From Hyaloperonospora brassicae (taxonomy: Eukaryota; Oomycota; Peronosporomycetes; Peronosporales; Peronosporaceae): a stretch of 64,000 nucleotides of DNA. A program made the translations under genes and the position numbers. Location: positions 26,987 through 90,986 of the forward strand of contig CANTFL010000310.1 of NCBI GenBank assembly GCA_947650285.1. The letters are read 5' to 3'. The notes under the pieces were generated by a model, which saw only the letters and a list, made by a program, of their open reading frames with translations, did no database searches and was not told where the DNA came from. This document shows positions 6,792 to 9,676 of this stretch, piece after piece; within the stretch, counting starts at the first letter, position 1, and every line of letters starts with the position of its first letter.

Positions 6792-8048
6792 GTCGTGACT
6801 ATGACTGGCCCCGCCAGTATCAGTTTGTCTGCAAGTACATATCGTGCTTGCGAGGTTTGTCAACGGGTGAAGCCCAGTCCTTCATTCCGTGCGCCACTAC
6901 AACCTCTGCCAGTTCCGGCGGAGTGTCGGGAGTCCGTGTCCATGGACTTCGTCTTCGGTTTTCCCGAAGACACTAACAAGAATAATGGTATTCTTGTGTT
7001 TGTTGACCGATTCAGCAAGATGGTCCATCTTGCTGCAGTCCCAGAATCGATCAAGGCATACAGGCTGTGCGCGTGTCTTCCTCGACACTGTGTTTCGACT
7101 CCACGGTTTACCCCGTGAACTCGTATCCGACCGTGACCCTTGGTTCACGGCGGCGTTTTGGCAATCCGCGTTCCGCACATTGGGAACACGGCTGAAGATG
7201 TCAAGCGTCTGACCTATCCTGAAATAGATGGTCGGACAGAACGAGCGACCCGTGTCCTCGAAGAGATTATTCGTGGATACGTCCACTCCTTTTCACATTG
7301 GAGTGAGTTCCTACCGATGGTTGAGTTTGCCATCAACAACTCCGTGCTTGCGTCCACGACGCACACACCTATCTACGTGAATAGCTTACGCCACCCACGT
7401 ATTCCCGCCCTCATACAGTGTGACTTTTGAATTAAGGGGTGGAGGGATTCGCTCGAGCAAAAACCGTTTTGGCGCTTGTTCATCACGTATCACCGCTTAC
7501 GCCGATACGTTTGATGCCGATGTCGACGTTGTCGACATCGATGAAGAAATCGACCGCAGCAGTAGCGATGACTCTACTACTACATCAGACAATGATGACG
7601 ATGCTGGAATATCAGTATCGTCCACGACCATGCCAGAGAGGAAGAGGACACCCTCGTTGAAGAAGAGAACGATCTCTTAGAAGTGCGCACAAAGCGCACT
7701 GAAAGACACAAGAACGAGTCAGCAGAGAACTTCCTGCTGACTTGAGAGTCGGTAGTCCGCTTTTTATAGGACTCCATCGCAAATGCGGTGGACCGCCAGA
7801 AACGGAATGCATACAAGAATGGAAGAGCAAATATTCTTTCATTTAAGGTTAATGACCTAGTACTACTGTCTACGGTAACCTTACCTGGACATGTAGTCAC
7901 TTGTTTCGTCAGTAGTAAACTACTGCCGAAATGCATTGGGCCATTTCGTGTGGTGCAACACAAGGACAATGCATACACGATCGAGTTGCCTCGCAGGATG
8001 CGCACCCATCCTACGTTCTATGTTGGTCGTCTCCGCCCGTACTACTAG
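6690..8048 (+). pseudogene. int: Integrase with GPF/Y module of copy A
   Basis: Integrase inserts the cDNA into the genome. The zinc-binding His pair lies near 6735-6765 and the C-x2-C partner near 6850, now in another frame after an indel. Catalytic positions: first Asp in Ser-Met-Asp-Phe (about 6940), second in Ser-Asp-Arg-Asp (about 7127), and Glu in Thr-Glu-Arg-Ala (about 7240). An Asp/Ser-rich acidic spacer follows (about 7510-7610). The GPF/Y module is clear as Gly-Pro-Phe-Arg-Val near 7940, and this part ends at TAG 8046. At least three frameshifts split the domain. Confidence 0.9.
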
Positions 8049-9676
8049 TACGAGGCCTCTTGCGAGAACGGAGACAGCTGGCACGCTCATGCATCCCCAA
8101 CAGATTCTTGTGATCACGGCTCAAAAACTCAAGTTGGCCCTTCAGCGACGCGGTCTCGCGACGAGCCGCTTTTAGCTCGTCGCACAAATGACGCCTCTCG
8201 CGTTCGCTCTTGAGCTGAGCGAACACGAAATCCGATCGTTCCTTCTCCCGATCGGCACGAAGACGTCGCACGTTCCACTGCAAGGCGTGCCGACGATCGT
8301 TTTCGTGATCGACGATCTCTACCCTTAACTCGGTCAGGTAACGCTCGTGGTTCATTAAAGTCGCGTGCAGGCCCGGCGGCTGAGCCGGACCTTGTCTTTC
8401 CACCGCCACCAGAACCATTGGTGGATTCCCACGGTGGTCAACGCTTTCTTGTGGAGCTTATCTTCAACCACCGTGGCGATTCAGAATCAAGGACGAGTTA
8501 CCTTGTCCGGTGGCGTGGGTACCCACCTTCCTCTGGCAGCTGAGAAACCAGGTTCCCAGCTGATGGCCGATGTTGAAGGTCTCGTCCACCAGTATGACAA
8601 GACCCATCCGATGGGTCCTCGGGCTTATCGGTAAACACGCGCTTTTGGCGCTTGTTCACGGATCGCAAGCTTGCAATCGCGTCCCGCATCTCAGCCGAGG
8701 TATGTGCCCTTCCTCAGGGCGAACTTAGGGAATACATGTCCCTATGTGCACGTTGCTAGTTGTCGGCACAGCTCGCACAAGGATCACCCCAAGTGAGGCA
8801 AGGAATTTCTTCCTCACTTGACAAACAATGAAACCGGTACCTTTCACCGGTTGGCGTTCGCTTTTCGAACCTGAGGCGTATCGCCTCAATTTTCTTGAGC
8901 CACCCTTCTCGTCCAAAATTCTTGACATGTTGGACGAACGCGTTCCACGCTGCCAAAAGCGATGTTCTTGTCATGCTTTTGGTTGCCATTATACCATCGA
9001 TGCCTAAGGAAGACATCGAGATCGAAGTCTATCTTCAGTGCGGAAGTTACTCGAGCTGGACCTTAAGCCATGAAGCTCAGTTGCATCGAATAAAGGAATT
9101 CGATGGTGTTGGCTTGTCTCGCGAGACAAGCCATTGATGAGCTGCTCAGACAAGCGCCACGGCTTCAGCTTATCACGCTTACAAGTAATACCTATTTGGG
9201 CACCACGGCTTACAGAATGTCGATGGCGCGAGCCATCGTCATCACGCTCTTGTGGGGGTGCACGAGTTGATACTGGTGAGGCATAGTATTCCTTACCATA
9301 GAGTTCATCATCACTGCCGAACAGACTGTGATGCATTTCACAAATCCGCTCGTTCGACAGTGCTCTTGACGAACAATGAGGCACCGCCGGTGATCGGGAT
9401 GCCTCTGGAACGTTGCGCGGATCAGGCACGTGCTGACTCGCCAGAATTGATGACCTCATTGACACGGTCATCATGTGCACGTGGCGCAATACCGCGTGCG
9501 TCTGCAGCACCTTCTGCTGCAGACGGAGAACAAGCAGCAGACGAAGAAGCGTCTGCCGCAGAGGCGGGCGAAGCAACAGGCTGTGTGGTCTTTGAATCAC
9601 CTCGCATATACATGTTAACCATGCGAGGCAAGGTCAGGCGTAAATAAGTCTGACCCAATAAGTGCTCGCTGTCCAA
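8011..9676 (-). pseudogene. Conserved antisense ORF of copy A, about 555 codons, frameshifted
   Basis: Reading away from the 3' LTR on the minus strand is a protein-like series. It has an Ala/Ser/Pro-rich start with Met at 9676, an acidic then His/Arg/Ser-rich stretch (about 9230-9400), a Trp-Asn-x-Phe-Val helix near 8940, and a Cys cluster PCL-x3-G-x2-C-x2-C-x-DN (about 8756-8872). Next come a coiled coil rich in Glu/Arg/Leu (about 8090-8370) and a basic tail Arg-Lys-Arg-Pro-Arg-Thr-Ser-Ser-Thr-Gly-Gly near 8040. The same order and key residues occur in copies B, C and D. The 3' end overlaps the end of the GPF/Y frame by 38 bp. Several frameshifts break it. The function is unknown; the tail looks like a nuclear localisation signal. 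It matches no family I can name. Confidence 0.65.
8400..8634 (+). pseudogene. Chromodomain at the end of copy A pol
   Basis: After a linker of about 115 codons that contains stops, the sense strand encodes Phe-Leu-Val-Glu, then Tyr-Leu-Val-Arg-Trp-Arg-Gly-Tyr-Pro-Pro (about 8490-8520) and a C-terminal helix. This is the chromodomain pattern found at the integrase end of chromoviruses, where it is thought to guide insertion to marked chromatin. An indel near 8530 shifts the frame before the helix. The same domain is seen in B, C, D and G. The linker and chromodomain lie antisense to the conserved minus-strand ORF. Confidence 0.8.

What the first reader, a model, noticed from the sequence alone, without database searches (positions are those of the whole stretch)
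8011..9676. Conserved antisense gene between integrase and 3' LTR in this gypsy lineage
In copies A, B and C/D the strand opposite pol encodes the same ordered protein: Ala/Ser-rich start, acidic and His/Arg/Ser stretch, Trp-Asn-x-Phe-Val helix, then FE-x3-PTG ... PCL-x-CG-x2-C-x2-C-x-DN, a coiled coil, and a tail of the type Arg-Lys-x-Arg-x-Arg-x-x-Ser-Thr-Gly-Gly-Asp. Residues are kept although nucleotides differ and although each copy is broken at different places. It would start within about 70 bp of the 3' LTR and overlaps the chromodomain-coding part of pol tail to tail. Antisense ORFs in this location are known in some plant LTR elements; I know of no described protein with this Cys module and coil in oomycetes. 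It may be a regulatory or nuclear factor of the element.
Basis: partly seen in the sequence, partly recalled or inferred. Interest (0 to 1): 0.82.

Follow-up and report, generated by a model that had tools for sequence, protein, structure and literature searches.

The report
Antisense gene in oomycete retrotransposons
Jumping genes of the gypsy type in a downy-mildew-like water mould carry an extra protein gene written backwards on the opposite DNA strand, partly on top of their enzyme gene; natural selection keeps its sequence, no known relative was found for it outside this group, and it probably acts in the nucleus to control the element.

Summary
The finding is real. Every copy in the window is broken, but the host genome holds copies with a full-length antisense frame (534-536 aa); 69 of 81 scored copies have no stop. 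The gene starts about 130 bp from the 3' LTR, ends at the integrase SH3 module, and overlaps pol by 629 nt, chromodomain included (L009). Median dN/dS between sub-families over the antisense-only part is 0.38; four of five control frames give 1.06-1.18, the mirror frame 0.48. In the overlap, constraint changes strand: at the coiled coil antisense 0.47, sense 1.20; at the chromodomain sense 0.32, antisense 1.05. Relatives occur in Peronospora matthiolae, P. effusa and Hyaloperonospora. No Pfam model passed its cut-off in nine proteins; no convincing fold match. Predicted: disordered N-terminus, helical core with conserved H-C-C-C, 108-residue helix, basic tail. It is a new protein family of a known kind, antisense accessory ORFs between pol and 3' LTR (plant Grande, Retand). 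A nuclear regulatory role is inferred, not shown.

The parts
8011..9613 (-). Antisense gene of copy A (decayed): start codon near 9613, stop at 8013-8011; matched in five pieces
   Evidence: tblastn of P0001; ORFs 8011-8418 and 9004-9474
9168..9613 (-). N-terminal Ala/Ser-rich, acidic, predicted disordered part (P0001 residues 1-149)
   Evidence: Model pLDDT below 50 for residues 1-164 of P0005; omega 0.63, equal to the mirror frame's 0.62
8627..9165 (-). Conserved helical core (about P0001 residues 150-328), with the WNAFV helix
   Evidence: pLDDT about 90 over most of it, core alone pTM 0.76; omega 0.20
8768..8830 (-). H-x9-C-x6-C-x2-C set, possible zinc site (P0001 H261, C271, C278, C281)
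   Evidence: 129 of 188 held proteins match the pattern, fragments included; the four columns are 93-97% conserved
8080..8400 (-). Coiled-coil part (about P0001 404-510), opposite the unconstrained pol spacer
   Evidence: Single helix 429-536 of P0005, pLDDT 88-98; antisense omega 0.47, sense 1.20; position approximate, alignment gapped
8011..8079 (-). Basic C-terminal tail, NLS-like (NLS motif recalled)
   Evidence: 88 of the 91 held proteins (of 188) with the tail have a K/R cluster before it
8399..8600 (+). Chromodomain remnant of pol in copy A, opposite the antisense linker
   Evidence: Repeat D17 covers 8399-8545, the rest read; Pfam Chromo in the L009 equivalent
7842..8048 (+). End of integrase (Tf2-1-like SH3 / GPY-F module) in copy A, with a stop at 8046-8048
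   Evidence: Repeat D15; PF24626 in L009; stop read
9746..10190 (+). 3' LTR of copy A (TGTAAC...GTTACA), with a purine-rich tract just before it
   Evidence: Repeats D1, D3; similar termini in 11 loci; ends read
2478..2922 (+). 5' LTR of copy A (termini mutated)
   Evidence: Repeats D1, D3; ends read
12164..13330 (+). Copy B of the antisense gene (27-30% identity, heavily decayed)
   Evidence: tblastn
24097..25332 (+). Copy C of the antisense gene (decayed; about 40% identity to P0001, last part 69%)
   Evidence: tblastn
39475..40710 (-). Copy D, the palindromic mirror of copy C
   Evidence: tblastn; inverted repeat I2, 100%

Best explanation
It is a protein-coding accessory gene of a chromodomain-bearing Ty3/gypsy LTR retrotransposon, on the strand opposite gag-pol between integrase and the 3' LTR. 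Shown by sequence: a 534-536 aa frame kept by purifying selection, part of the inserted element, with the overlap with pol divided so that the coil stretch is constrained on the antisense strand and the chromodomain stretch on the sense strand. Inferred: it is transcribed antisense from a promoter in or beside the 3' LTR; the protein dimerises through its long C-terminal coiled coil, enters the nucleus through the basic tail, uses its helical core (perhaps zinc-bound through H-C-C-C) to bind nucleic acid or a chromatin protein, and uses its acidic disordered N-terminus to contact the transcription machinery. It would thereby tune expression or integration of the element, working like the antisense nuclear proteins of some retroviruses and of the plant Grande element. 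Belief: about 0.97 that it is a selected protein gene, about 0.45 that it is a nuclear regulator of the element.
For: Intact frames: 534 or 536 aa in 8 of 20 fetched 10-kb loci, L009-L016 (these loci were chosen for long frames); 69 of 81 scored full-length copies without a stop. Inside the element: LTR pairs 95-100% identical flank it in L009-L013; 5-bp target duplications read exactly in 8 of 11 loci, one more with a single mismatch, two without. Selection; substitution phase switches at the borders, with internal-branch counts by phase of 85/149/66 in the core (p 5.5e-9), 92/130/81 in the coil overlap (p 0.0014) and 14/19/37 in the chromodomain (p 0.0022). Conservation: 142 related proteins at E <= 0.001 in one search, with the same architecture in P0005, P0006, P0007, P0017, P0149. 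Structure: confident core and 108-residue helix. Basic tail in 88 of 91.
Against: No transcript, promoter or protein was seen; my scan for an oomycete initiator (motif recalled) upstream of the gene found none in 6 loci. The zinc site and NLS are pattern matches only. In the N-terminal part the antisense frame (0.63) is no lower than its mirror frame (0.62), and only the stops tell them apart. Nei-Gojobori counts do not model overlapping genes, and the coil stretch aligns at only about 55% nucleotide identity. Copies with a truncated antisense frame but LTR pairs 99.0-99.7% identical exist (L024, L023), so the gene may not be needed in cis. No fold match supports a nucleic-acid-binding role.
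Confidence: 0.6

Rival explanations
1. Integration or nuclear-import cofactor: the protein joins the pre-integration complex, for example through the integrase C-terminus or chromodomain encoded opposite it, and brings it into the nucleus or onto chromatin rather than regulating transcription.
For: Basic NLS-like tail, coiled coil, coding on the same stretch as the chromodomain; a review proposes such roles for similar plant ORFs (PMC7264820).
Against: No interaction data; pol already has a chromodomain and SH3 module.
Confidence: 0.2
2. Anti-silencing factor: the protein counteracts host heterochromatin or small-RNA silencing of the element, like VANC of Arabidopsis VANDAL transposons (recalled).
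For: Many full-length copies and young ones by LTR identity; weakly constrained disordered N-terminus; in P. infestans small RNAs map to retrotransposons in both orientations (PMC3522703, passages), so such silencing is plausible in the group.
Against: No sequence or fold link to a silencing suppressor turned up; VANC itself was not compared.
Confidence: 0.15
3. The antisense RNA, not the protein, is what matters (double-stranded RNA control), and the open frame is incidental.
For: Antisense transcripts of other retroelements may regulate by RNA (PMC7264820); small RNAs of both orientations from P. infestans elements (PMC3522703).
Against: Codon-specific purifying selection and relatives at 40-50% protein identity with the same domain order need a translated product.
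Confidence: 0.03
4. The antisense conservation is a shadow of sense coding (pol or an env-like ORF).
For: Opposite the chromodomain, constraint is indeed on the sense strand (0.32 against 1.05).
Against: In the antisense-only part the sense strand has 7-15 stops per frame in the 3 copies examined; in the core the pol frame gives 1.15 and the antisense frame 0.20; the coil stretch is constrained on the antisense strand.
Confidence: 0.01

Closest known systems
Antisense additional ORFs between pol and 3' LTR (aORF-3R) of plant Grande (gene23), RIRE2, Retand, PvRetro13 and fungal Boty (brtn)
   Same: Strand, place between pol and 3' LTR, presence in many copies, no clear relatives in other proteins; in plants also SMC or Mis12-like domain hits and nuclear location for Grande (PMC7264820, parts 1-2 of 3 read; PMC11963269, passages; brtn also in a passage of PMC8365987)
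   Different: No TRP28 (PF04195) match; an oomycete, chromodomain-bearing element; a 629-nt overlap with pol with constraint divided between strands, which I did not see described in the parts and passages read
Antisense proteins of deltaretroviruses (HBZ of HTLV-1, APH-2 of HTLV-2)
   Same: Antisense gene beside the 3' LTR, nuclear products (passages in PMC7264820 and PMC11963269); acidic N-terminus and C-terminal coil (HBZ layout recalled)
   Different: No basic region directly before the coil (the basic tail follows it), a conserved helical core with H-C-C-C, different host and element; no direct sequence comparison with HBZ was run
Segregated overlapping genes of HIV-1
   Same: Each stretch constrained mainly by one of the two genes, seen where one is structured and the other disordered (PMC9119678, title and start of abstract in the listing)
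   Different: Here the two genes lie on opposite strands
Oomycete Chronos/Archon Ty3/gypsy elements
   Same: Oomycete gypsy elements; Chronos has a chromodomain (PMC5348765, passages)
   Different: They are defined by a second, plant-type RNase H, not matched here by Pfam; 'antisense' does not occur in that paper's main text

Membership tests
aORF-3R (antisense ORF between pol and 3' LTR) | Antisense to gag-pol, between pol and 3' LTR, inside the element | tested here: met
   L009-L013 anatomy; target duplications in 8 of 11 loci
aORF-3R (antisense ORF between pol and 3' LTR) | Present in all or most copies of the family | tested here: inconclusive
   59 of 81 scored antisense copies have a listed integrase C-terminus 5-8 nt past their end; 59 of 150 listed integrase rows have a listed antisense partner; both lists are capped
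aORF-3R (antisense ORF between pol and 3' LTR) | Conserved about as well as other element proteins | tested here: met
   omega 0.20 in the antisense core, against 0.24 in the integrase C-terminus and 0.32 in the chromodomain; coil 0.47 and N-terminal part 0.63 are less constrained
aORF-3R (antisense ORF between pol and 3' LTR) | Transcribed from its own promoter; nuclear product (shown for Grande) | not testable with these tools
   No RNA or protein data; no recalled initiator motif found in 6 loci
Retand-type TRP28 antisense proteins | PF04195 domain | tested here: not met
   No PF04195 in the tables for P0001-P0003 at E <= 1, P0005 at E <= 0.5 or P0008, P0149, P0135, P0041, P0074 at E <= 0.1; not among the 25 of 55 families shown for 86 members
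HBZ-like bZIP | Basic region directly before a leucine zipper | tested here: not met
   The helix is preceded by a low-confidence linker with 11 K/R and 13 D/E in 83 residues and followed by the basic tail
Tyrosine recombinase (core-binding domain name on P0008) | Recognisable recombinase domain | tested here: inconclusive
   No Pfam match for P0008 at E <= 0.1; no convincing fold match, which does not exclude it
Chromodomain Ty3/gypsy element (host of the gene) | gag, protease, RT-RNase H, integrase and chromodomain | tested here: met
   Retrotrans_gag, RVP_2, RVT_1, RT_RNaseH, Integrase_H2C2, rve, SH3_Tf2-1, Chromo in five L009 pieces
Chronos (oomycete) | Additional plant-type RNase H besides the chromodomain | tested here: not met
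   The only RNase H models matched at E <= 0.1 in the L009 pol pieces are RT_RNaseH and RT_RNaseH_2, on one stretch

The most novel reading that the evidence does not exclude
A so far undescribed family of retrotransposon nuclear regulators with a new helical fold, spread through downy mildews and encoded antisense with its structured and disordered parts interleaved with those of pol: the antisense coil is written opposite a free pol spacer, and pol's chromodomain opposite a free antisense linker. It would be an independent, stramenopile invention of what HBZ does for HTLV.
Probability: 0.35. Interest if true: 0.8.

Novelty: new variant of a known kind. Interest (0 to 1): 0.62.

Why it matters
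Antisense accessory genes of LTR retrotransposons have been noted for years without a known function (PMC7264820). Here is a large, measurable case outside plants: many intact copies, clear selection on the antisense protein, and a long overlap where constraint changes strand at definable borders. That gives domain borders for functional tests and a clean example of how two genes share both strands. It may also explain a large set of 'uncharacterized' proteins in downy mildew proteomes as retrotransposon genes: single 90% clusters with 524 and 1335 members are named from Peronospora matthiolae, though their genomic context was not seen.

Tried and rejected

An initiator motif for oomycetes, recalled and not read from the papers listed, was not found upstream of the gene in 6 loci; the strict sense-strand pattern was not found there either. 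Pol of young copies often has its core and C-terminal parts in two overlapping frames, in others in one; whether this is frameshifting, decay or assembly error was not resolved. Rows dropped: dN/dS group medians use 6 x 8 of the 20 loci L009-L028 and 9 x 7 of the 28 loci L009-L036; pairwise values use 12 of 20; L029, L030, L035 and L036 entered only the tree and phase counts; L001-L008 were not used for selection tests. Bootstraps for the antisense coil lost 4-55 of 1000 replicates to saturation.

No oomycete description of such a gene was seen in the listings. Of the oomycete papers opened for passages, PMC5348765, PMC6570648, PMC11540230, PMC7217449 and PMC6264045 hold no 'antisense' in the main text; PMC3522703 uses it 24 times, in the 12 of 23 places shown for silencing constructs and small RNAs, not for a gene. 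Other listed papers were not opened, and subscription papers were not searchable.

Full report
What was checked. The window lies in a 100.56 Mb assembly of 898 contigs.

Intact copies elsewhere in the genome. A search with the 9004-9474 ORF scored 150 of 1652 candidates and listed 150 matches. I fetched 20 ten-kb loci chosen for long frames and later 8 shorter ones. From the first ATG the antisense frame is 534 aa in L009-L014 and 536 aa in L015 and L016; the other 12 of the 20 are shorter. A search with the L009 protein scored 81 of 3746 candidates, and 69 of the 81 have no stop codon.

Anatomy (L009, pol orientation). LTR 1022-1409, gag 1418-2608, pol core 2503-6522, pol C-terminal frame 6267-7502, antisense gene 8478-6874, LTR 8609-8996; the two LTRs are identical. 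Pfam finds gag, protease, reverse transcriptase, RNase H, integrase, a Tf2-1-like SH3 module and a chromodomain. A purine-rich tract precedes the 3' LTR, and 5-bp target duplications read exactly in 8 of 11 loci (L015 and L016 share the same flanks; L018 has one mismatch, L012 and L021 show none). So the gene is part of the mobile unit. In 59 of 81 scored antisense copies a listed integrase C-terminus lies 5-8 nt beyond the antisense end on the other strand; the lists are capped, so this is a lower bound.

Selection. In the antisense-only stretch, median dN/dS over 48 pairs between two sub-family groups is 0.38 in the antisense frame. Four of the five other frames give 1.06-1.18; the fifth, on the pol strand, gives 0.48, as expected because its third positions face those of the antisense frame, but all pol-strand frames there hold 7-15 stops in the 3 copies examined. 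The core gives 0.21 and the N-terminal part 0.66. Within the decayed L015-type group values are 0.44-0.97, as expected when copies decay after insertion. A parsimony count on a tree of 28 loci shows the phase of substitutions switching at the predicted borders (internal branches): integrase C-terminus in the sense wobble (p 1.3e-11), coil overlap in the antisense wobble (p 0.0014), chromodomain in the sense wobble (p 0.0022), antisense core in the antisense wobble (p 5.5e-9), N-terminal part in the antisense wobble (p 0.0055), and no phase between ATG and LTR (p 0.8). On terminal branches the signal remains in the integrase C-terminus (2.3e-4), coil (0.016) and core (3.6e-7) and is lost in the chromodomain (0.74) and N-terminal part (0.72). 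L029-L036 reach only part of this region.

Division of the overlap. Reading the same nucleotides in both genes (61-63 usable pairs, medians): integrase C-terminus sense 0.24, antisense 1.60; coil/spacer sense 1.20, antisense 0.47; chromodomain sense 0.32, antisense 1.05; antisense core antisense 0.20, pol frame 1.15; N-terminal part antisense 0.63, pol frame 1.08. The mirror frames follow the constrained frame, as they must: 0.25, 0.66, 0.44, 0.32 and 0.62 in the same order. In the N-terminal part the mirror frame is thus as low as the antisense frame. Codon bootstraps for four pairs give coil antisense upper bounds of 0.70-0.89 and sense lower bounds of 0.79-0.89; in one pair (L032/L026) the intervals overlap slightly. 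For the chromodomain the point values separate (sense 0.25-0.39, antisense 0.78-1.29) but the intervals overlap in all four pairs or nearly so, because it is short. Nucleotide identity in the coil stretch is only about 55%, so alignment error adds noise there; it should not favour one frame.

Protein family. Single-sequence searches returned 13 and 135 proteins and the profile search 142 at E <= 0.001. Named sources are Peronospora matthiolae, P. effusa and Hyaloperonospora arabidopsidis; many are unnamed contigs. Full-length members keep the same order: Ala/Ser-rich start, acidic stretch, core, H-C-C-C, linker, coil, basic tail. Of 188 held proteins, fragments and my own three included, 129 match H-x9-C-x6-C-x2-C, and 91 have the C-terminal tail, 88 of these with a basic cluster. 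No member outside Peronosporaceae was named in the rows shown; 22 and 15 rows beyond the best 120 were not shown, so wider spread is open. Only proteins, not their genomic surroundings, were seen for other species, so the antisense place in the element is shown for this genome alone.

Structure. AlphaFold2 on P0005 with 86 rows: residues 1-164 low confidence (disordered), 166-345 helical, mostly at high confidence, 349-426 low confidence (the part written opposite the chromodomain), one helix 429-536 at high confidence (the part written opposite the free pol spacer). The core alone (P0074) gives pTM 0.76. Neither has a convincing match among solved structures, nor the whole model among viral ones.

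How it most likely works. Shown: it is a selected protein gene carried by the element. Inferred: antisense transcription from the 3' LTR side, dimerisation through the coil, nuclear entry by the basic tail, and a regulatory or chromatin-linked role through the core. The comparison is with plant aORF-3R proteins, of which Grande's is nuclear and has its own promoter, and with retroviral antisense proteins (PMC7264820, parts 1 and 2 of 3 read; PMC11963269, passages). It meets the positional definition of that kind, shows no TRP28 domain of Retand, and is not a bZIP of HBZ type.

Verdict. The general kind is known; the protein family, its host group and the divided overlap were not described in the open-access listings and passages seen.

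Noticed in passing
20070-44738: Near-perfect palindrome: arms of about 10.7 kb, mostly 98-100% complementary in pieces, around a central stretch of about 3.2 kb. A real inverted duplication or an assembly artefact.
   Followed up: no
62100-64000: Start of another element of the copy A type (LTR 80-93%, leader 98% and a gag stretch 93% identical to copy A) running off the window end.
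   Followed up: no
L009, L010, L012, L013 pol, about 6267-6522 in pol orientation: The pol core and the integrase C-terminus/chromodomain lie in two overlapping frames that part near a G-rich run, while other copies have one frame of about 1600-1666 aa. Frameshifting, decay or homopolymer error.
   Followed up: partly
own genome, integrase C-terminal rows: A class of 26 of 150 rows has the sense frame closed at 346-350 aa instead of 407-411, before the chromodomain; none of the 26 is beside one of the 81 listed antisense copies. In L022 and L023 a length change inside the overlap truncates both genes at once.
   Followed up: partly
L015 and L016: Two contigs carry the same element with the same flanks and target duplication, i.e. 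duplicated or haplotypic sequence in the assembly.
   Followed up: no
P0017 and P0135: Single 90% clusters of this protein with 524 and 1335 members, the named member being an 'uncharacterized' Peronospora matthiolae protein: probably retrotransposon genes inflating a proteome.
   Followed up: no
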